This document shows positions 2,745 through 57,060 of a stretch of 64,000 bases of DNA, piece after piece. The DNA is from Kroppenstedtia eburnea (GTDB taxonomy: Bacteria > Bacillota > Bacilli > Thermoactinomycetales > DSM-45169). The DNA lies in contig NZ_CP048103.1 in the NCBI RefSeq assembly GCF_013282215.1, positions 2,604,001-2,668,000 of the forward strand, given 5' to 3'. Both the position numbers and the translations under genes were made by a program. A model generated the notes under the pieces. The model saw only the letters and a list, made by a program, of their open reading frames with translations. It did not search any database and was not told where the DNA came from. The first letter of the stretch is position 1. Each line of letters opens with the position of its first letter.

Positions 2745-2770
2745 AAAAAAGAGGCTTGAGTGAGCCTCTT
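2745..2770 (-). terminator. Terminator of regulator-peptide pair 1
   Basis: On the minus strand GAGGCT-CACTCA-AGCCTC followed by TTTTTTC, just after the peptide stop. Confidence 0.85.
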
Positions 2771-2775
2771 CTTAA

Positions 2776-2901
2776 TCATCCCGGTTGGTCTGAGTTGTAT
2801 TTGGATACAGGCAGATCACTTGGAGTCACGGTGCCCAGTGATAATAAGGAGAAAAGAAATGCGGCCGACAAGGAGAAAAAAACAACTTTACCGAACCTCA
2901 T
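2776..2901 (-). CDS. Small secreted signalling peptide precursor (Phr-like), overlaps regulator stop
   Basis: A 41-codon gene in another frame from the regulator. Its ATG lies inside the last codons of the XRE-TPR gene (14-base overlap) and is preceded by AGGTGA at 5 bases. The product has a classical export signal: MRFGK, an uninterrupted hydrophobic stretch at residues 6-23 (VVFFSLSAAFLFSLL...), then a polar tail TPSDLPVSKY ending NSDQPG. Size, signal and overlap with the TPR regulator are those of RRNPP pre-peptides (Phr, PapR, NprX), which are exported, trimmed and re-imported to bind the regulator. No homologue search was possible; the mature peptide is probably within the last 5-12 residues. 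A terminator follows immediately. Confidence 0.75.
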   Translation of the reverse strand: MRFGKVVFFSLSAAFLFSLLSLGTVTPSDLPVSKYNSDQPG

Positions 2902-4222
2902 TCAAGTCACCTGCTTTTCTCTGGTTGAGTGTTTCCTGTACAGTAAACATATTAACCGTACATAGTTGAAATTCCTTCTCGTCAATCCCTTCCCAACACC
3001 GGGCCAGTTCATGCCACGCTTCATACTCCTTCTCCCCTGTATGATACTTCTGTGCGAGCTCAACCACCCGCCGGTAACAAGCAATCCCTTCTTCTCTTCT
3101 GTTTTGCTGAACAAGCAGACGTCCCAGGGCCAATGAGGCATCCATCTGATCCATATAATCTTCTATTTGTTCCGCTTTTTGAATCGCTTGGGTCAGATAC
3201 TTCTCGGCCTGACTCCATTTCTCTTGATGGGTGTACAGGATTCCCAACTGAGTGCAAGCACGCAGAAAGGATTTTTCATCCACTCGATCCCGGGGGAGTC
3301 CAAGTGCGATTTTGAAACAGTTTTCTGCTTCCTCCCATTTTTTCTGAGCGGTGTGGACACTTCCGAGAACACTCCAAAGAGCGAGGGCGCTGTTGTATTG
3401 CTGATTGATGCCAGCCAACTGGATGCCCTCCAGGGCGAATTTTTTCGCGTTTTCATAATCACGGCTCCTGCGGAGCAACTCCGCCCGCAACCAATAGAAA
3501 GAGAGTCTGGTTTCCACCGGTTCAATTTGCGGGAGTTCCTCCCAAACGTCCCGAACGATTTGCAAGGACTCCACGATCCGGCCCAATCTCTCCAAGTAGA
3601 TGGCTTTGTTTCGTAACAAGAAATATTTAACCCATGGTCTCTCTCCAGCCGGACAGAAGGCATCCAGGCCGCTGTCGGCATACTGCAGGGCCTGTTGCAG
3701 ATTGTTGTTATAGTAACTGCAACGACTCAAATCTTTGAAACTGTAGGCTTCGATGTTGTCTATCTTTGCGGTTTCGTTTTTATTGGCCAAGCGGATGGCC
3801 GTGAAAAACTCCCGTTCCGCTTTGTTGAGTTTTCTCTGATGCAGGTAACAGGTGCCCTTGAGCCAATGAGCTTGGGAGGCATACAAGTGGTCGTCGGGGA
3901 TGGGCGTCTTCTCCAGTAACGACAGGGCTGATTCACTCTGATCCAATCGGTTCATCGACTCGATCAGCGTCAGTCGGAACTTCAACTCGGCCTGGTCATC
4001 TCTCTCCCTCAGCAAGAATTCCGGCAGCTGCTCCATGGGGATACCCAACTTCTCCAGGATGTAGTAGACCTTCTCCATCTTCACATGGGAGACACCTCTC
4101 TCCACATTGCTGATCGTCGCCGGAGAAATGTTGTCATCAGCCAAATCCTCCAGACGAAGGCCCCGTTCTTTTCGGACCTTGCGAATGATTCCGCCAATTT
4201 CATGTATATCCAAGACCTTCAA
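2888..4222 (-). CDS. XRE-family regulator with C-terminal TPR domain (RRNPP type)
   Basis: Peptide-responsive transcription factor of the PlcR/NprR/Rgg class by architecture. Residues 8-62 form the helix-turn-helix (IGGIIRKVRKERGLRLEDLA... SPATISNVERG). About nine TPR-like helix pairs fill the remaining 370 residues, with FYWLRAELLRR, LGILYTHQEKW and LARCWEGIDEKEF clearly TPR. It is 444 aa, normal for NprR-like proteins. The stop overlaps the start of the small exported peptide gene, the expected partner. A paralogue with the same layout is at 55726-57060. The AT-rich upstream region (CTGATATAAAATAG) resembles that of the paralogue. Target genes cannot be told from the window. Confidence 0.9.
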   Translation of the reverse strand: MKVLDIHEIGGIIRKVRKERGLRLEDLADDNISPATISNVERGVSHVKMEKVYYILEKLGIPMEQLPEFLLRERDDQAELKFRLTLIESMNRLDQSESALSLLEKTPIPDDHLYASQAHWLKGTCYLHQRKLNKAEREFFTAIRLANKNETAKIDNIEAYSFKDLSRCSYYNNNLQQALQYADSGLDAFCPAGERPWVKYFLLRNKAIYLERLGRIVESLQIVRDVWEELPQIEPVETRLSFYWLRAELLRRSRDYENAKKFALEGIQLAGINQQYNSALALWSVLGSVHTAQKKWEEAENCFKIALGLPRDRVDEKSFLRACTQLGILYTHQEKWSQAEKYLTQAIQKAEQIEDYMDQMDASLALGRLLVQQNRREEGIACYRRVVELAQKYHTGEKEYEAWHELARCWEGIDEKEFQLCTVNMFTVQETLNQRKAGDLNEVR

Positions 4223-4609
4223 CCCCTGTCACCTTCCATATCCAAGATATTTTCCACTATTTTATATCAGATCAAGTTGAATGAAAATAGATTGAAAGAC
4301 TCTTCCTGCAACTCTTACCCCTGTCGTATAACTTTTGGATCGGGGAGAAGCGGGGGCAACACGGATTGTGGGATTTGTGCTTCAGCTCCTGCCCGTCGTT
4401 CCGGCCTTCGGGTCGGTCTATTGCAAAGCCGCAGAAAACGGAAGGAGTCCGGCACCCATGGCAACGGGAATCGGACTCCTGACCGCAAACCGTGTCACAG
4501 GTTGTATAGACAACGGTGACTACGGATTTGTGCTTTTTAAAGTTCACTTGCTTTATTCTGTCATACAGGAGAAAACTTCTCTCCGGTTCAGTGTTACTCT
4601 CCTCTTCCT
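4223..4609. other. Intergenic region between hsdR end and regulator 1
   Basis: No convincing gene. It has a hairpin around 4441-4487 (GGAGTCCG...CGGACTCC) and a loose direct repeat (ACGGATTTGTGCTT near 4360 and 4522). A 91-codon minus-strand ORF is present but shows no coding character. Confidence 0.4.
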
Positions 4610-7600
4610 CTAACCTTCCTGTTGCCGACCCTGCTGTGCCCGTTGGTACACGGAATCCAGGATCCAGGTCATCACCGTGTCACGGAAGTCTTCTTCGCTC
4701 ATCAGTTTGGCAAAGATGTTTTGGTTTTGGCCCATGCGGTTGACGGCTTTGCCCATGAATTTGTCATCAAAGACATAGCGGAAGTTGCTTTTGGTGTTGT
4801 TTTGAGCCGCCTGGACCACTTCCTCATCCTGAAGCAGATCTTCCTCGATCTGGTCGAGGAAAAGTTTGTCGGATTCGGCAAAGTCTGTCCCGAATCGCTC
4901 GTTCAGCATCTCGATAATGGAAGAGAGAGGCACTTCTTCTTCCTCCCCCCGTCCCCGGGCAGTGCCGGCGGCGGTGGCTCCCTTGAGGGCGGCGGATTCC
5001 TCGGCGATTAAGTGAATGCGCCCTTCGGCGGTCTTCTCCAGACGGTAATATTCCAGCTCCACCTCATTGTCGAGGGTGAGCCCGCCGGAATCGGGGGAGC
5101 GGGGCAGTTTCCGCAGGAGGAGGGAGCCGTAGGCGTGCAGCTGATGCAACTCCACAGACTGGAAAGGGGCGATCTGGGAGATATGAGCGTAGAGACGGAC
5201 AAACGTCTCCAGGGTTTTCTTGAACTCCTCCTGCTCCTCCTCCGGCTTTGCCTGGAAACGGTCCACCGCCGGATCCAGATATTTGTGGAGTTCCCCCAGA
5301 TCCTCCCGCCGCTGGTTCTCCTTCGGTTTGAAGAAAATATGGCAGAAAGACTCCACCTCGGACTCCCAGTAAATCTGGAAGTCGTCCAGCTTGCTCTTCA
5401 GATCGTAGACGAGGTGGGGATCCGTCTCCTTATCGATCATCGTCTGCTCGTAGAAGGGCTGGAAGGATTTCTGGATCTCCTCCTGTTCGTTGACAAAATC
5501 GAGGACAAAGGTATCCGTCTTGGCCGGATGGGTCCGGTTGAGCCGGGAGAGGGTCTGGACCGCCTGGATCCCGGTCAGTTTCTTGTCCACAAACATGGTG
5601 TGCAACAGGGGCTGGTCAAAGCCCGTCTGGTATTTGTCCGCCACGATCAACAGCTGATACTCATCGGTGTCAAAGCGCTCCCGCAGCTCGCTCTCGGGGA
5701 AACCGTTCTCCTTGGCTTCGGTGAAGTCTTCATCTCCGTCCCGGACCGTTCCTGAAAAGGCGACTAGCACCTTCAGCTCCTGTTCGTAACCGTTTCGCTT
5801 GATGTAGTTTTCAAACTCCCGCTTGTAGCGGAGGGCGTGAAGGCGGGAGCCGGTCACCACCATCGCCTTGGCCCGGCCGTTGATCTTGTGCCGGGTGATC
5901 TGGCAGAAGTGCTCCACCATCACCTCTGTCTTCTGGGCCAGGTTGTGGGGGTGGAGGCTGACGAAGCGGGCGATCGCTTTGCGGGCTTTTTTCTTGTCCA
6001 CCCGGGGATCGTCTTCCGCGATTTTGCTGAGACGGTAATAGGTGCGGTAGGTGGTGTAGTGCTTCAGGACGTCGTGGATGAAGCCTTCCTCGATCGCCTG
6101 CTTCATGGAGTACAGGTGGAAGGGCTCCGGCTTGGACTCCGGATCCTTCTTCACCCCGAACAGCTCCAGGGTTTTCGCCTTGGGAGTGGCGGTGAAGGCG
6201 AAGAAGCTAAGGTTGGCTTGGGGCCCCCGCTTGGAGAGGGCCTTCAGGATCTCCTCCTCGGCGACGTTTTCCGCTTCTTCCAGCCGCTCCTCCAGCTCCG
6301 CCGCCGCTTCCAGGGTGGGGGCTGCCAACACATCCCGCACCGCCTGGGCAGACTGGCCCGACTGAGAGCTGTGGGCCTCATCGACGAGGATGGCGAAGTT
6401 TTTCCCGGTCTGCTCCTCCACCTGATCCAGGATGTAGCCGAACTTCTGCAGGGTGGAGATGATGATGCGCGCCCCGCGGTTCAAGGCCTGGGCCAGCTGG
6501 CCGGAATCCTTGTCGATCTTGCGCACCACGCCCTGCCTGTGCTCAAACTGGTAGATCGTCTCCTGGAGCTGTTGGTCCAGTACCCGCCGGTCGGTGATCA
6601 CAATGACGGAGTCAAAGACCGGCCGGTCGTCGGCCCCGTGGAGATGGGCCAACCGGTGGGCCAACCAAGCGATGGAGTTGGACTTGCCACTGCCGGCGGA
6701 GTGCTGGATAAGGTAGTTGTGGCCGGCGCCGTGTTCCCGGGCGTGCCACTCCAGCTGGCGGACGGCGTCCAGCTGGTGATAGCGGGGGAAGATCATCGTC
6801 TCCTTGCGGATCACTTCCCCCTTCCCGTCCAGCTTCTCCTCCACCTCCAGATGGAGGAAGCGATGCAGGATGTCCAGCCAGCTGTCCCGCTGCCATACTT
6901 CCCGCCACAGATAGCTGGTACGGAAGCCCCCCTCGGGATCCGGCGGGTTGCCCGCCCCCTTTTGATATCCCCGGTTGAAGGGAAGGAAAAAGGTCTTCTC
7001 CCCGGCCAGCCGGGTGGCCATATACACCTGGTCTGGATCGACGGCGAAGTGAACCAAGGCCCGCTGTTTAAACCGGAACAGACGCTCCCGGGGGTCCCGG
7101 TCCCGCCGGTACTGCCCTTTGGCATCCTCCACCGTCTGACCGGTGAAGGGGTTTTTCAGCTCCACCGTGGCCACGGGCAGACCGTTGACGCTGAGCACCA
7201 TATCCAGGGATTTTTTGTACTGTTGGCTGTAGTAGACCTGGCGGGTCACGGTCAGGATGTTCTGCCCGTACTTCTCCGCGATTGTGGGGTTGAGACCGCT
7301 GGCGGGGGCGAAGTAGACGGTCTTCAACTTCTCCCCATACACCTCAAATCCCCGGCGCAACACCTTCAACATCCCGTTCCGGTTGAGGGCCTGAGAGAGA
7401 CGCTCCAGCACCTTCTTCTCCGCCCCCGCCCCCAGCATCTTCTCCAGCCGTTGCCAGGCCTTGGGCTGGGTGGTACGGATAAAGGTGAAAAAGGTCCGGG
7501 GAAACAGGGCATGCTGGACGTCATACTCCTTCGGGTCCCCCTTCACATAGCCGCCTTCCTCGATCAGGTACCGTTCTATCGTCTCTTCCAAGGCCCGCTC

Positions 7601-7618
7601 CGACTGATCCACCGGCAC
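4610..7618 (-). CDS. hsdR: Type I restriction enzyme, R (endonuclease/translocase) subunit
   Basis: ATP-driven translocase and nuclease of the HsdRMS complex, which cuts DNA not methylated at the HsdS-specified site. N-terminal PD-(D/E)xK nuclease: D near residue 138 (SLDMVL) and ELK near 153. SF2 helicase motor: Walker A HSAGSGKS near 306, DEAH box VDEAHSSQSG near 410, motif III FTATPK. The C-terminal part carries the helical M-subunit interface. 1002 aa is full length. GTG start with GGAGTGGAGG upstream. Last gene of the hsdM-hsdS-hsdR operon, 26 bases after hsdS. All catalytic motifs are intact, so restriction should be active. Confidence 0.96.
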   Translation of the reverse strand: MPVDQSERALEETIERYLIEEGGYVKGDPKEYDVQHALFPRTFFTFIRTTQPKAWQRLEKMLGAGAEKKVLERLSQALNRNGMLKVLRRGFEVYGEKLKTVYFAPASGLNPTIAEKYGQNILTVTRQVYYSQQYKKSLDMVLSVNGLPVATVELKNPFTGQTVEDAKGQYRRDRDPRERLFRFKQRALVHFAVDPDQVYMATRLAGEKTFFLPFNRGYQKGAGNPPDPEGGFRTSYLWREVWQRDSWLDILHRFLHLEVEEKLDGKGEVIRKETMIFPRYHQLDAVRQLEWHAREHGAGHNYLIQHSAGSGKSNSIAWLAHRLAHLHGADDRPVFDSVIVITDRRVLDQQLQETIYQFEHRQGVVRKIDKDSGQLAQALNRGARIIISTLQKFGYILDQVEEQTGKNFAILVDEAHSSQSGQSAQAVRDVLAAPTLEAAAELEERLEEAENVAEEEILKALSKRGPQANLSFFAFTATPKAKTLELFGVKKDPESKPEPFHLYSMKQAIEEGFIHDVLKHYTTYRTYYRLSKIAEDDPRVDKKKARKAIARFVSLHPHNLAQKTEVMVEHFCQITRHKINGRAKAMVVTGSRLHALRYKREFENYIKRNGYEQELKVLVAFSGTVRDGDEDFTEAKENGFPESELRERFDTDEYQLLIVADKYQTGFDQPLLHTMFVDKKLTGIQAVQTLSRLNRTHPAKTDTFVLDFVNEQEEIQKSFQPFYEQTMIDKETDPHLVYDLKSKLDDFQIYWESEVESFCHIFFKPKENQRREDLGELHKYLDPAVDRFQAKPEEEQEEFKKTLETFVRLYAHISQIAPFQSVELHQLHAYGSLLLRKLPRSPDSGGLTLDNEVELEYYRLEKTAEGRIHLIAEESAALKGATAAGTARGRGEEEEVPLSSIIEMLNERFGTDFAESDKLFLDQIEEDLLQDEEVVQAAQNNTKSNFRYVFDDKFMGKAVNRMGQNQNIFAKLMSEEDFRDTVMTWILDSVYQRAQQGRQQEG

Positions 7619-7644
7619 GGCTCCTCCACTCCTTTCATATATGT

Positions 7645-8976
7645 CTACGCCCGCACTTCATCCCGCACATCGATCTTCCCCGTCACCGCCGACGAGATGA
7701 GAGCCTGGCGGTATTCCTTGATTTTGGTGATTTGGATTTGGAGTTTGGAGATGAGGGTGTCGATTTTGGAGGTTTGGTTATCGAGATACTTGACTATCTC
7801 CAACTGTTCCTTTATTTCCGGAACTCCGGTATAAATATCACCAACAATATCAGTATTTAAGTTTAACTGGGTACCCAACTTACCCAATCCTCCATAGGGA
7901 GCACCTGAGGCAAAAACGTAATAAAAAAATTTCTCGTTTTCCTGGAGATCCGGAAAATACACAAATCCGTCATGAATACAACACTTAATCCCTGAAATAC
8001 ATGGTTTTCCAACAGAACCTGCTATACTTAAGAATAATTTTCCCGGAGGTAACTTGACACTTAAACTGGCCCCAAGTTCAGACAAAGTTTGGGAGGTTTT
8101 TTTCAAATACATATTGGAAGATGTAACATCTGCAATCCTAACCCATGCGTATTCTCCATTGTTATCAAAGTAAATAGGATCTTCAATCGGACGAGGTGAC
8201 GCCCCCCTTTTAACCTTTGATAGCCATTTAATCTTAAGAACCTTCCAATGCTCCGGCACCTCTCCCAACCACTCAATCCCCGAATCTTTCATCGGGACAT
8301 TGGGGTTGAGACCTTTGGTGACGGCCTGGGTGATGAGGGCCTGGCGTTTTTCCCGGAGGAGTTCGATCAGCCGCTCCTTCTTCTCCACCAACCGATCCAA
8401 CTTCTCAGTCTCCCTGTCAAGGAAGTTAGCGATGGCTTGTTGTTCATTTAAAGAAGGAACAAGTATATAAGTACCTTTTAATCTATCAGCTTTGATCCCA
8501 AGGGCAGTTGATCCAGTCGCATTACTCCTTAATTCTGCTTTACCAAAATCGGATAAAAAATGGTATTTTAGATACTTATCAGTTAGTTGTTTATCATCAA
8601 TTTTGAAAAGGATAACCCGTTGAGCCAAGGCAATGAATGGATCAGTTATCTGGGCGGCCTCACCCAGAGGAGCTTCAGTGGTTAGTACAACATCTCCTTC
8701 CTTAGGGAAACCTCTTACCATCCAATCGTAATAAAGATGTTCACTGATAAACTCTGGTGATAATGAATGATTAATTTTTCCTTCTTTTATATTTTTGGCA
8801 GTGATTAAAGGCACGCCTTTATCCTTCTTTTCGGGTGTTTTCCCTCGATAATCTACAAACTTTTTAACAACCCTTCTTAAACTAAGTAACTTCCAATGAT
8901 CAGGAAACCCGGTCGACAAACATTTATACTTGGGGTGATTTTCCAAACCGGTATTATCTACACTGTTTTTTTTCAT
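7645..8976 (-). CDS. hsdS: Type I restriction-modification, S (specificity) subunit
   Basis: DNA-recognition subunit that fixes the bipartite target of the type I enzyme. 443 aa with two target recognition domains (about residues 30-175 and 235-375). Each is followed by a conserved coiled-coil spacer: ...LDRETEKLDRLVEKKERLIELLREKRQALIT near 185-220 and ...KIDTLISKLQIQITKIKEYRQALIS near the C-terminus. The DNA coding the two recognition domains is markedly richer in A/T than the spacers and than hsdM/hsdR, as when domains are exchanged by recombination. 15 bases downstream of hsdM. The recognised sequence cannot be predicted. Confidence 0.95.
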   Translation of the reverse strand: MKKNSVDNTGLENHPKYKCLSTGFPDHWKLLSLRRVVKKFVDYRGKTPEKKDKGVPLITAKNIKEGKINHSLSPEFISEHLYYDWMVRGFPKEGDVVLTTEAPLGEAAQITDPFIALAQRVILFKIDDKQLTDKYLKYHFLSDFGKAELRSNATGSTALGIKADRLKGTYILVPSLNEQQAIANFLDRETEKLDRLVEKKERLIELLREKRQALITQAVTKGLNPNVPMKDSGIEWLGEVPEHWKVLKIKWLSKVKRGASPRPIEDPIYFDNNGEYAWVRIADVTSSNMYLKKTSQTLSELGASLSVKLPPGKLFLSIAGSVGKPCISGIKCCIHDGFVYFPDLQENEKFFYYVFASGAPYGGLGKLGTQLNLNTDIVGDIYTGVPEIKEQLEIVKYLDNQTSKIDTLISKLQIQITKIKEYRQALISSAVTGKIDVRDEVRA

Positions 8977-8991
8977 AATAAATCCCCCCTC

Positions 8992-11019
8992 TTACTGAGC
9001 AATTTCCCCCAACATCCCCAAAATCTCCTTCTCCAACGCCTGAATCTCCGCATCAATCTCCTCCAAAGGCCTCAGCGGTTTATACTCATAGAAATGGCGG
9101 GTGAAGGGGATCTCGTAGCCCACCTTGGTCTTCTCCTCGTCGATCCAGGCGTCGGGGACGTGGGGTTTCACTTCCCGTTCCATGTAGTCGTGGATCTCCT
9201 CTTTCAGCGGCACGTTCTCATAGTCCCGCAGGTCCGGGTCCGGCTCGATGTTGCCTTTGCTGTCTTTGCAGACCTGGGCGGTTTCATCCCTCTCCCCGCA
9301 GGCGGCGAGGATCGCCTTCTGGATGGAGGCGGTCAGTTTGACGCCCTGTTCCTTGAAGACTCCCTTCAGCTCTTTTAAAAAGGCGTCCCTGTCGGTGTAG
9401 ACCTTCTCCGTCACCATCCCCCCCAGGGTCTTCAGGATGGCCTCCTGTTGCGCTTTCCCCTCGGCAATCTCCTTCTCCCCGGCCGCTCCTTTTTTGCGGG
9501 ACTTGTCCAGGTTTTGGAATGGGGTCTGTTCTGTCAGGCGTTGGATCCCCTCCTCCGTCACCTGGATGCGCAGGCGCAGGGGGCGCTCCACAGTGATGCG
9601 CCGGTAGCCAAAGTCGGCGTTGTCAAAGATTTTGCTGTATTTTCCTTCCCGGAACTCGCCGTGGATGCGGGAGATTTCGTCGATATGGTCCTGGCCCAGC
9701 TCATGCCGTTTGTTGCCCAGGCTTTTCCGCATCGTCTGAAAGAATTTCACCCCGTTGATCAGCTGGATCTTCCCTTTGCGGGCGGGCCGTTTCCGGTTGG
9801 TGACGATCCAGACGTAGGTGGAGATGCCGGTGTTATAGAAAAGTTGGTCGGGCAGGGCCACGATCGCCTCCAGCCAGTCGTTCTCGATGATCCAGCGGCG
9901 GATGTTGCTCTCGCCGGACTCGGCGCCGCCGGTGAAGAGGGGGGAGCCGTTGAAGACGATGGCGAGGCGGGAGCCGCCCTCCTCGGGGGATTTCATCTTG
10001 GAGATCATGTGCTGCAGGAAGAGGAGCGACCCGTCGGAGACCCGGGGCAGACCCGCTCCGAAGCGGCCGTTATATCCCTGCTGTTTATGCTCATCCTCGA
10101 TCGCCCGCTGCACCTTTTTCCACTCGACGCCGAAGGGGGGATTGGAGAGCATATAGTCAAACTTCTCATGGACGAGGCCGTCATGGGTGAAGCTGTTGCC
10201 GAACTTGATGCGGGAGGCATCCTGTCCCTTCAGGAGCATATCCGCTTTGCAGATGGCGTAGGATTCGGCATTCAGCTCCTGGCCGAAGACCTTGAGCTGG
10301 GCTTGGTCGTTGAGCTCCTTCAGATACTCCTCAGCCACGGAGAGCATGCCGCCGGTACCGCAGGCGGGGTCATACAGGGTCCGGATGATCCCCTTCCGGT
10401 TGAGTTCTCCCACTTCATCTTCGTTGAAGAGGAGGTTGACCATGAGCCGGATCACTTCCCGGGGGGTGAAGTGCTCCCCGGCGGTTTCATTGGATTGTTC
10501 CGAGAAGCGGCGGATCAACTCCTCAAATATGTATCCCATCTCCAGATTGCTCACCCGGTCCGGGTGCAGATCGATGGCGGCGAACCGCTCCACCACCAGA
10601 TAAAGGAGGTCTGCCTCCTCCAATCGGTCGATCTGGACGTGGAAGTTGAAATAGTCGATAATGTCCCGGGCCTCCCTGGAAAAGCCCCGGATGTAGGCTT
10701 TCAGGTTGTCGGCGAGATTGTCCGGTTCCGCCTTGAGGGTCTGGAAATCGAAGGGGCTGGTGTTGCAAAACCGCTCTCCGGTCACGCTGGTCAGGACCGG
10801 CTCCGCCTGTTCCGGATCGAGGCCCATCCCCTGGATCTCTTCCATCTTCGCCAGCACCTGGGCTTTGGTGGGGGACAGCACGCAGTCGAGGCGGCGGAGA
10901 ACGGTAAAGGGAAGCACGACTTTCCCGTACTCCGATTGCTTGTAATCCCCGCGCAGAATCTCGGCGATGGACCAGATGAAGTTGGTCTTTTCGCTGAAGT
11001 TGGTCAATTGGTCGCTCAT
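8992..11019 (-). CDS. hsdM: Type I restriction-modification, M (methyltransferase) subunit
   Basis: N6-adenine methyltransferase of the type I complex. N-terminal HsdM helical domain, then the catalytic domain with SAM motif I DPACGTGG near residue 216 and catalytic motif IV NPPF near 291. A long C-terminal extension (to 675 aa) is rich in charged helices. Start placed at ATG 11019 (MSDQLTNF) because AAGGAG lies 9 bases upstream; an in-frame start 30 bases earlier lacks a ribosome site. First gene of the operon, right behind the terminator at 11063, with TACAAT as a possible -10. Confidence 0.96.
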   Translation of the reverse strand: MSDQLTNFSEKTNFIWSIAEILRGDYKQSEYGKVVLPFTVLRRLDCVLSPTKAQVLAKMEEIQGMGLDPEQAEPVLTSVTGERFCNTSPFDFQTLKAEPDNLADNLKAYIRGFSREARDIIDYFNFHVQIDRLEEADLLYLVVERFAAIDLHPDRVSNLEMGYIFEELIRRFSEQSNETAGEHFTPREVIRLMVNLLFNEDEVGELNRKGIIRTLYDPACGTGGMLSVAEEYLKELNDQAQLKVFGQELNAESYAICKADMLLKGQDASRIKFGNSFTHDGLVHEKFDYMLSNPPFGVEWKKVQRAIEDEHKQQGYNGRFGAGLPRVSDGSLLFLQHMISKMKSPEEGGSRLAIVFNGSPLFTGGAESGESNIRRWIIENDWLEAIVALPDQLFYNTGISTYVWIVTNRKRPARKGKIQLINGVKFFQTMRKSLGNKRHELGQDHIDEISRIHGEFREGKYSKIFDNADFGYRRITVERPLRLRIQVTEEGIQRLTEQTPFQNLDKSRKKGAAGEKEIAEGKAQQEAILKTLGGMVTEKVYTDRDAFLKELKGVFKEQGVKLTASIQKAILAACGERDETAQVCKDSKGNIEPDPDLRDYENVPLKEEIHDYMEREVKPHVPDAWIDEEKTKVGYEIPFTRHFYEYKPLRPLEEIDAEIQALEKEILGMLGEIAQ

Positions 11020-11062
11020 CGCAGTCCGCTCCTTCTTTTTGCACATCAAGATTTATTGTAGC

Positions 11063-46531: not shown

Positions 46532-46749
46532 ATGGAAACAAAACTGACCTCTCGTTCTGAGGATCCACTTGATTTGCGGCCGGTCCCCCCCGGTTTTGAA
46601 ATGCGGCGATGCCACTGTCGACGAATTGCAAGGCTTGCTTCAAATCATTCTGATAGAAACTGCACAGGCTCAACTCATTGAAAGCGGCCGCTTCCAAATC
46701 GGTGGGGGTTTGGCTACTTTCAGAAGATGTGCGCTCCGCGCTTTTCCAT
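46532..46749 (-). pseudogene. Fragment of an XRE-TPR (RRNPP-type) regulator
   Basis: About 70 codons matching the middle of the two intact regulators: AER..., then LEAAAFNELSLCSFYQNDLK and QALQFVDSGIAAFQNRG, compare EAASFCELGICAYMQNDLE and AIQFTNSAWGAFKDNG. After QNE the frame breaks; VSMTYFLVNQ in another frame may continue the match (VKYFLLRNK). No helix-turn-helix and no peptide gene. It lies directly behind the LD-carboxypeptidase stop, in the same direction. Confidence 0.75.
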
Positions 46750-55613: not shown

Positions 55614-55742
55614 TTAAGTATGACCGGGAACATTGGTCAGGGCTTCTTCTGATGATTGGGATAACACATCGGGGGTCTCAGTAAAAGCAAAAAAACTGAA
55701 CATAATTACCAAGGCCAGAGAACACCTAATCCATCTCGTCAA
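55614..55742 (-). CDS. Small secreted signalling peptide precursor 2 (Phr-like), overlaps regulator stop
   Basis: 42-codon ORF in another frame, from TTG 55742 lying 17 bases inside the regulator gene, with GGTGA 5 bases upstream. Product: basic MTRWIRCS, hydrophobic LALVIMFSFFAFT (residues 9-21), then polar TPDVLSQSSEEAL ending TNVPGHT. Same geometry as the gene at 2776-2901: overlap with an XRE-TPR gene, export signal, short polar tail. Probably the pre-signal read by the adjacent regulator. An internal ATG (residue 14) would lose the export signal. Confidence 0.65.
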   Translation of the reverse strand: MTRWIRCSLALVIMFSFFAFTETPDVLSQSSEEALTNVPGHT

Positions 55743-57060
55743 AAAAATCACCATCCTTGTCCTTTAGTAGCCTTTTCACTTGATACATATTCAGCATACA
55801 TTTCTGAAATTCCTTCTCGTCTAACGAATGCCAGCATTCGGCCAGTTTAAACAGAAGCTTGTATTCTCTTCGCTGTAGTGTATGCTTTTGTGCAAAATCG
55901 AGAGCACGTTGATAGTATTCGATGGCCTCTCTGATTTCATTATTTTTCTTCAAGAGATCACCCATCACCATTAGAGCATAGGTGAGCTGGGAAAGGTCAT
56001 TTTGGTTCTCTGCACATGTAATGGCTTGTCTGATGGCTTCTTTTGCTTCGGAATCTTTATTCTGATGAACATATAGAACGCCCAGTTTCGCAAATGTAGT
56101 CGATAATGTCCTCTGATCGGATAGTATATCCTTGGCACTGAGGGCCGTGTCAAAACAAGATTCTGCAATGTCCAACTCATTCTGGGACGTGTATATGCAC
56201 CCCAGCATTGTCCAAAAATCAAAGATGTATTTGGAGTGATTGTTTTTTACAGCAAGATCCAAACCTTGTTTTGCGTATTTTAAGGCTTCATTGTCTCCCC
56301 CGGTTTTTCGGTGAAATTCAGCCCGTAGCCAGTAGAAAGTCAGCTGAGTCTCTACTTCCTCCACCTCATGCAGTGAATCCCACACCTCTTCTATGACACG
56401 GATTCCTGCATGTATATCCCCAAGCTTATCGAGATATACAGCCTTGTTGCGGTATATCACAAATCGAACATACTGCCGATCCCCATTATCCTTAAATGCT
56501 CCCCAGGCGCTGTTAGTGAACTGTATCGCGCCCTCCAGATCATTTTGCATGTATGCACAAATGCCCAACTCACAAAAGCTGGCGGCTTCAATGTTTTTAT
56601 CATTGTTGGAAGAATGCTGATTTGCAAGTTTGATCGCATTGTAATAAGCCCGCTCTGCCCGTTTGAGGTTCCCCTTTTTAACGAAGCATTTACCTTTCAA
56701 ATAAGCGGCAGTCGCAGCTAATGGATGGTTGTCCTCCAAATTCAAATGTTCAATCTTGTCCATCGCTTTGTCATACTGTTTCAGTTTCCACAGGGACTCC
56801 ACCATTTCAAGTTCCAATTCAACATTGCGGAGCTCGTTCTCTTCTTCCATTAACAAAAATGGAATTTGGCTGGTTTCGATTTTTAACTTGTCCAATAGGT
56901 ACAGGGCCTTATCCATGCTGACATGGGGTACGCCACGTTCGATGTTGCTGATCGTTGCGGGAGAAATATTGTTATCAGCTAAATCTTCCAAGCGGAGTCC
57001 TCTTTGCTTGCGTATCTTCCGAATAATTTCGCCTATTTCCTGAAGTTCGACCGTTTTCAT
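55726..57060 (-). CDS. XRE-family regulator with C-terminal TPR domain (RRNPP type), second copy
   Basis: 444 aa from ATG 57060 (MKTVELQEIGEIIRKIRKQRG), 6 bases after GGAAGGTGG. Helix-turn-helix nearly identical to the first regulator (RLEDLADNNISPATISNIERGVPHV), so both may bind similar operators. TPR repeats follow (CELGICAYMQNDLEGAIQF, FYWLRAEFHRKTGG, FAKLGVLYVHQNKDSEA). Its end overlaps the peptide gene. The TPR part is more diverged than the DNA-binding part, as expected if each copy reads its own peptide. Confidence 0.9.
   Translation of the reverse strand: MKTVELQEIGEIIRKIRKQRGLRLEDLADNNISPATISNIERGVPHVSMDKALYLLDKLKIETSQIPFLLMEEENELRNVELELEMVESLWKLKQYDKAMDKIEHLNLEDNHPLAATAAYLKGKCFVKKGNLKRAERAYYNAIKLANQHSSNNDKNIEAASFCELGICAYMQNDLEGAIQFTNSAWGAFKDNGDRQYVRFVIYRNKAVYLDKLGDIHAGIRVIEEVWDSLHEVEEVETQLTFYWLRAEFHRKTGGDNEALKYAKQGLDLAVKNNHSKYIFDFWTMLGCIYTSQNELDIAESCFDTALSAKDILSDQRTLSTTFAKLGVLYVHQNKDSEAKEAIRQAITCAENQNDLSQLTYALMVMGDLLKKNNEIREAIEYYQRALDFAQKHTLQRREYKLLFKLAECWHSLDEKEFQKCMLNMYQVKRLLKDKDGDFFDEMD

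What the first reader, a model, noticed from the sequence alone, without database searches (positions are those of the whole stretch)
2776..4222. Unannotated exported peptide gene overlapping an RRNPP-type regulator
Seen: a 41-codon gene with good ribosome site starts inside the last codons of an XRE-TPR gene, codes a clean signal peptide plus polar tail, and is followed by a terminator. Known: Phr/PapR/NprX precursors sit just behind, often overlapping, their regulators. Inference: a new quorum-sensing pair with mature signal near the end NSDQPG.
Basis: partly seen in the sequence, partly recalled or inferred. Interest (0 to 1): 0.82.

Follow-up and report, generated by a model that had tools for sequence, protein, structure and literature searches.

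The report
Peptide signal gene overlapping its receptor
A tiny gene overlapping the end of a DNA-binding receptor gene almost certainly encodes a secreted peptide signal read by that receptor, and it is one of a large family of such pairs found in every searched genome of this order of thread-forming, often heat-loving bacteria.

Summary
A 41-codon ORF (2776-2901, minus strand) starts 14 nt before the stop of an HTH-TPR regulator (2888-4222), has a good ribosome site, encodes a signal-peptide-like leader plus polar tail, and ends at an intrinsic terminator.

The Kroppenstedtia guangzhouensis orthologue keeps regulator and small frame, with the last 14 shared residues unchanged. In ten genomes of the family, about 50 of 81 related regulators carry such an ORF, mostly at offset -14 or -17; only 2 of 80 unrelated window ORFs do.

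All 50 peptides have a proline near the C-terminus, usually fourth from the end (xxPxxx). Some precursors repeat the motif (QSEPGGL x4, SEDPGMS x3), which marks the signal. Receptor and peptide divergence correlate; pooled dN/dS is about 0.3.

The model is HTH plus about nine TPRs; NprR is the best solved match. The receptor family is in 42 of 42 genomes of the order, 1-27 copies each, with no full-length match in a sample of other Bacilli.

Most likely an RRNPPA-type quorum-sensing pair: a new member of a known kind, in an order-specific receptor subfamily. Its signal is one residue shorter than in the sister species. Binding, secretion and targets are untested.

The parts
2888..4222 (-). Receptor/regulator gene, 444 aa, TTG start: N-terminal XRE-type HTH (about residues 7-66) and about nine canonical TPRs
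   Evidence: Pfam HTH_3 and TPR_2/TPR_12 above cut-off; AlphaFold2 model pLDDT 87.7; best VIA-align match NprR 5dbk_A, Z 28.3 over 347 residues
2776..2901 (-). Propeptide gene, 41 aa, ATG, overlapping the receptor gene by 14 nt
   Evidence: conserved in the sister species and in about 50 of 81 homologous loci
2779..2796 (-). Codons for NSDQPG, the region of the presumed mature signal (most likely DQPG or SDQPG)
   Evidence: Last 14 shared codons of query and orthologue differ only by one silent change; C-terminal proline motif in 50 of 50 peptides
2907..2912 (-). Shine-Dalgarno AGGTGA of the propeptide gene, inside the receptor's last codons
   Evidence: Sequence; match length 6 at this start
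2746..2773 (-). Intrinsic terminator, 11-pair stem, directly after the propeptide stop
4259..4287 (-). Candidate promoter region of the receptor-propeptide operon, largely conserved in K. guangzhouensis
   Evidence: Consensus match 9 of 12, no more than chance on its own; conserved in the alignment of upstream regions
55614..57060 (-). Second pair of the same family in the window: receptor 55726-57060 and propeptide 55614-55742 (TTG at -17, or ATG at -29 from 55754) ending TNVPGHT

Best explanation
A receptor-propeptide pair of the RRNPPA quorum-sensing kind. Shown here: the two genes overlap and share a terminator; the receptor has a DNA-binding HTH and a TPR superhelix like that of NprR; the small gene encodes a leader plus a conserved proline-containing C-terminus; the arrangement recurs across the order. 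Inferred: the propeptide is exported by Sec, cleaved outside to a C-terminal peptide of 4-6 residues (about SDQPG), re-imported by an oligopeptide permease, and bound in the TPR groove, which switches the receptor's DNA binding. Target genes are unknown.
For: About 50 of 81 homologous receptors in ten genomes have a signal-peptide-like ORF at their end, mostly starting at -17 or -14, against 2 of 80 unrelated ORFs. Ribosome-site match of 6 nt or more in 37 of 48, against 1.3% of internal start codons. 50 of 50 peptides have a proline in the last 8 residues, 38 with the last proline exactly fourth from the end. Tandem copies of the motif within precursors. Orthologue keeps the frame and the tail; pooled dN/dS 0.30. 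Receptor TPR distance and peptide distance correlate, Mantel r 0.36, p 1e-4. HTH plus about nine TPRs, NprR first among solved structures. Six oligopeptide-binding-protein matches (SBP_bac_5) in the genome.
Against: No binding, secretion or expression data. The window's own peptide is the shortest at its C-terminus, with only one residue after the proline, so this copy may be altered or decaying. TPR superhelix scores are not specific: LGN reaches Z 26.7. The Mantel correlation also fits plain shared ancestry. Several homologues have no peptide gene.
Confidence: 0.86

Rival explanations
1. The pair descends from a quorum-sensing pair, but this copy's signal is decaying or changed; the receptor now acts as an orphan or listens to a related signal in the same cell, such as the SDQPGPW-ending peptide next to the split paralogue (locus L011).
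For: The query peptide ends one codon earlier than in K. guangzhouensis (SDQPG against SDQPGG) and is the only one with a single residue after the proline. A paralogous peptide ends VNSDQPGPW. Some receptors in these genomes are split or lack a peptide gene.
Against: The receptor is intact with dN/dS about 0.14 against its orthologue, the last 14 shared codons of the peptide have no amino-acid change, and start, ribosome site and terminator are all intact.
Confidence: 0.08
2. The small ORF encodes a hydrophobic membrane toxin or a bacteriocin-like peptide, with the HTH protein as its repressor or antitoxin.
For: Small hydrophobic product next to an XRE-type regulator.
Against: The conserved part is the polar tail, not the hydrophobic part. 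Tail motifs occur in tandem copies. The regulator is a nine-TPR protein, unlike known small antitoxins. No Pfam, NCBIfam or PHROGs match for the peptide.
Confidence: 0.03
3. The receptor works as a protein-binding or phosphatase-type regulator (as Rap, and NprR without its peptide, do), and its HTH is secondary; the peptide still is its signal.
For: Rap and NprR are the closest bacterial solved folds.
Against: The HTH is among the most conserved parts of the family, which argues for DNA binding.
Confidence: 0.1
4. The small ORF is a chance reading frame that is not translated.
For: For this pair alone the substitutions are too few to show coding bias.
Against: Recurrence behind 50 of 81 receptors against 2 of 80 controls, ribosome sites, the C-terminal proline in 50 of 50, pooled dN/dS 0.30.
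Confidence: 0.01

Closest known systems
NprR-NprX (Bacillus cereus group; RRNPPA clan B)
   Same: HTH followed by a nine-TPR superhelix with canonical TPRs; peptide gene directly downstream; best solved-structure match, Z 28.3 over 347 residues
   Different: 14% identity in the structural alignment, and no NprR chain found by sequence at E 0.01; family restricted to another order; xxPxxx signal code
AloR-AloP (Paenibacillaceae; PMC7425212)
   Same: Large paralogous set per genome, HTH-TPR receptor, short ORF of 32-50 aa downstream or overlapping, mature peptide of about six C-terminal residues (AloP13: SHGRGG)
   Different: AloR hits lay in Paenibacillaceae only; TPRs described as more degenerate; here proline-anchored signals; no full-length match outside the order in our samples
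AimR-AimP arbitrium and Paenibacillaceae subfamily 08 (PMC12700828, PMC10075063)
   Same: DPG motif reported as widespread in their mature peptides, like the [DE]PG core here
   Different: AimR is phage-encoded with degenerate TPRs; no phage record matches this receptor
Candidate clusters of RRNPP_detector (PMC10075063)
   Same: That survey reports 21 novel receptor subfamilies and lists Thermoactinomycetaceae among families with QS-linked biosynthetic clusters, 4 cases; these pairs may fall in one of its clusters
   Different: The family is named once in the main text; the supplementary tables could not be read here, so overlap is unconfirmed
Rap-Phr with duplicated pheromones (phages phi3T and phi105; PMC11343458)
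   Same: Precursors with several copies of the signal, as in several relatives here; Rap folds rank just behind NprR
   Different: Rap lacks the HTH; the query precursor itself has a single copy

Membership tests
RRNPPA quorum-sensing systems | Receptor of about 250-500 aa with a peptide-binding TPR or TPR-like domain | tested here: met
   444 aa; TPR_2, TPR_12 and others above cut-off; about nine TPRs in the model. Peptide binding itself not tested
RRNPPA quorum-sensing systems | N-terminal HTH (transcription-factor members) | tested here: met
   HTH_3 at residues 13-65, 33.2 bits against a cut-off of 23
RRNPPA quorum-sensing systems | Adjacent small gene for a Sec-exported propeptide: basic N-terminus, hydrophobic core, C-terminal signal | tested here: met
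   judged by hydropathy and charge, SignalP not available
RRNPPA quorum-sensing systems | Mature peptide binds the receptor and changes its activity | not testable with these tools
   Needs binding or reporter assays; a receptor-peptide complex could not be modelled here
RRNPPA quorum-sensing systems | Import through an oligopeptide permease | tested here: inconclusive
   Six SBP_bac_5 matches in the genome; use for this peptide unknown
NprR subfamily | HTH plus nine-TPR fold | tested here: met
   5dbk_A ranks first, Z 28.3, rmsd 4.7, 347 aligned, but unrelated TPR proteins reach 26.7
NprR subfamily | Sequence identity of at least 30% over at least 80% to reference NprR (criterion of PMC10075063) | tested here: not met
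   14% in the structural alignment; no NprR chain at E 0.01 by phmmer. PDB constructs were the only references at hand
AloR subfamily | Sequence membership with Paenibacillaceae AloR | tested here: inconclusive
   No AloR sequence at hand; the profile found no full-length match outside the order in 200- and 300-genome samples of the class, where only the best 5-8 candidates per genome were scored
AimR arbitrium | Encoded by temperate phages | tested here: not met
   No tblastn match in 50,697 phage records; neighbour DUF4349 gene shared with the sister species

The most novel reading that the evidence does not exclude
The order has its own signalling code: one receptor subfamily, up to 27 copies per genome, reads short peptides built around one fixed proline. 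Some signals (for example SEPGGL) are shared between genera while others are private, so cells could keep separate channels and also eavesdrop. In this genome SDQPG and SDQPGPW would be two near-identical signals with possible crosstalk.
Probability: 0.35. Interest if true: 0.62.

Novelty: new member of a known kind. Interest (0 to 1): 0.47.

Why it matters
RRNPPA pairs are known from Bacillus, Paenibacillus, streptococci and clostridia. Here a whole order of spore-forming, mycelium-making, often thermophilic bacteria carries a distinct receptor subfamily in every genome searched, together with precise candidate signals. The peptides are short and apparently unmodified, so they can be synthesised, and cell-cell signalling in sporulation, mycelium formation or antibiotic production in these bacteria becomes directly testable. 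Large paralogous sets with one fixed anchor residue are also a good natural data set for how receptor-signal specificity evolves.

Tried and rejected
Pfam, NCBIfam and PHROGs gave no family for the small peptide. dN/dS on the query-orthologue pair alone is uninformative (0.56 overall, other frames similar), so pairs were pooled. The DUF4349 lipoprotein gene downstream was considered as a target: it is adjacent in K. guangzhouensis too, but not found in the 1.5-kb flanks of other relatives, so only a weak candidate. The type I restriction-modification genes upstream are absent at the orthologous site and were rejected as partners. The plasmid search gave one 26% match and the phage search none. 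The viral fold library listed only generic TPR proteins and other unrelated proteins. Downstream neighbours of about 30 pairs showed no common gene by eye. The genome-contig scan found only K. guangzhouensis, so the genome search was used instead.

Full report
What is there. On the minus strand, ORF 2888-4222 (444 aa, TTG start) is followed by ORF 2776-2901 (41 aa, ATG), which begins 14 nt before the end of the first. Its product is MRFGKVVFFSLSAAFLFSLLSLGTVTPSDLPVSKYNSDQPG. The ribosome site AGGTGA lies inside the receptor's last codons. An 11-pair hairpin with a T-run at 2773-2746 follows the stop.

More than chance. I scanned for ORFs of 28-75 aa that start within 60 nt of a host ORF's stop and have a hydrophobic core after net-positive residues. 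In the window 4 of 82 ORFs of 150 aa or more qualify, and two of these four are receptors of this family. Among 81 regulator loci of ten genomes of the family, the scan found 50. Two of these (L083, L086) I set aside because they lack the motif; two more (L035, L042), where the peptide start lies behind the stop, I added by eye, so the set of peptides again counts 50. Starts lie mostly at -17 or -14, and a ribosome-site match of 6 nt or more precedes 37 of 48, against 1.3% of 4,158 internal start codons.

Own genome and sister species. The 3.56-Mb genome holds about a dozen paralogues. Eight peptide genes were found, two of them behind a receptor gene that is split. The orthologue in Kroppenstedtia guangzhouensis (named) has a 91% identical receptor and the peptide MKFGKVVFFSLSTVFLLSFLSLGPATPSDLPVSKYNSDQPGG. 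All seven amino-acid changes fall in codons 1-27; the last 14 shared codons have one silent change. The window's own peptide stops one codon earlier. Pooled over three orthologue pairs, leaving out the first five codons because they overlap the receptor, dN/dS is 0.30.

The signal. Every one of 50 peptides has a proline in the last eight residues, and in 38 the last proline is exactly the fourth residue from the end. The commonest form is [SD]-[EDN]-P-G-x-x. Some precursors carry tandem copies: SEDPGMS three times, GNPGEY three times, GDPIHT twice, [DN]SKPGGH twice; QSEPGGL four times and NSEPGGL three times in another family of the order; SQEPGW twice, not at the extreme end. Precursors with several pheromones are known for Rap-Phr systems (PMC11343458). 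The repeats point to a mature peptide of about 5-7 residues. The query's nearest receptor relatives end in DEPGH, SEPAH, GEPGH, SEPEH, SDPGH or SEPGR, so its own mature form is probably DQPG or SDQPG. It is the shortest of the set after the proline, which is either a changed signal or the start of decay.

Receptor and peptide diverge together. Across 47 pairs receptor TPR distance and peptide distance correlate (Mantel r 0.36, p 1e-4), more than for the HTH (r 0.24); r is 0.27 among pairs below 55% identity. This does not separate co-adaptation from shared ancestry.

The receptor. The model (pLDDT 87.7) shows an HTH followed by about nine TPRs. VIA-align puts NprR first (Z 28.3, 347 residues) with Rap proteins close by, but eukaryotic TPR proteins score up to 26.7, so the fold alone is not diagnostic. 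By sequence no NprR is found. The TPRs are canonical, as in clan B of the published structural phylogeny (QssR, NprR, Rap), while the [DE]PG signal resembles the DPG motif noted there for AimR and Paenibacillaceae subfamily 08 (PMC12700828).

Distribution. A 50-sequence profile finds homologues in 42 of 42 genomes of the order at E 1e-60, 1-27 each. In samples of 200 and 300 Bacilli genomes no other order has a full-length match; the best outsider scores 2.7e-21 over part of the TPRs. Only the best 5-8 candidates per genome were scored there.

Mechanism. Most likely export, cleavage outside, re-import through an oligopeptide permease (six candidate binding proteins) and switching of an HTH-TPR receptor. 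Overlap and a shared terminator tie synthesis of signal and receptor together. Shown: anatomy, conservation, predicted fold. Inferred: export, processing, import, binding, direction of regulation, targets. One relative (L057, precursor with SEDPGMS three times) is followed by a gene with a non-ribosomal peptide synthetase condensation domain, which fits control of a biosynthetic cluster there; for the query no such neighbour exists.

Known or new. It works like an RRNPPA pair and meets the defining features that could be tested. It is not an NprR by sequence. It may lie in one of the candidate clusters of PMC10075063, whose main text names Thermoactinomycetaceae once; supplementary tables were not readable. 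My searches of the open literature found no paper that describes these pairs.

Noticed in passing
window 55614-57060 (-): A second receptor-propeptide pair of the same family, with a peptide ending TNVPGHT; its start may be TTG at 55742 or ATG at 55754.
   Followed up: partly
window about 46587-46742 (-): A short TPR fragment (FNELSLCSFYQNDLKQALQFVDSGIAAFQ...) that matches residues 141-193 of the receptor family and has no HTH or start of its own: probably the relic of another receptor gene.
   Followed up: partly
window 4610-11049 (-): Three ORFs that read like type I restriction-modification genes (hsdR, hsdS, hsdM) lie upstream of the pair; at the orthologous site in K. guangzhouensis (L089) other genes stand there, so this looks like a variable insertion. 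Named by eye, not by family search.
   Followed up: partly
L013/L011 and L015/L016/L012 (own genome, outside the window): Two paralogous receptor genes are split by frame breaks while the small propeptide frame behind each is kept (VNSDQPGPW; QARDPIES); a relative with the SDQPGPW ending and an intact receptor exists in K. guangzhouensis (L027).
   Followed up: partly
L105, L106, L108, L109: The same SEPGGL ending occurs in propeptides of four different genera of another family of the order, up to four times in one precursor: a possible signal shared across genera.
   Followed up: partly
L057:3295-4302: A non-ribosomal peptide synthetase condensation domain (Pfam PF00668, E 1.8e-82) follows a pair whose precursor carries SEDPGMS three times; a candidate quorum-controlled biosynthetic cluster.
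   Followed up: partly
C-terminal codons of the receptor genes: The conserved acidic/glycine C-terminus of many receptors (EEG, GD) is encoded by the embedded ribosome site of the peptide gene (GAGGAGG, AGGTGA), so its conservation may reflect the DNA signal rather than the protein.
   Followed up: no
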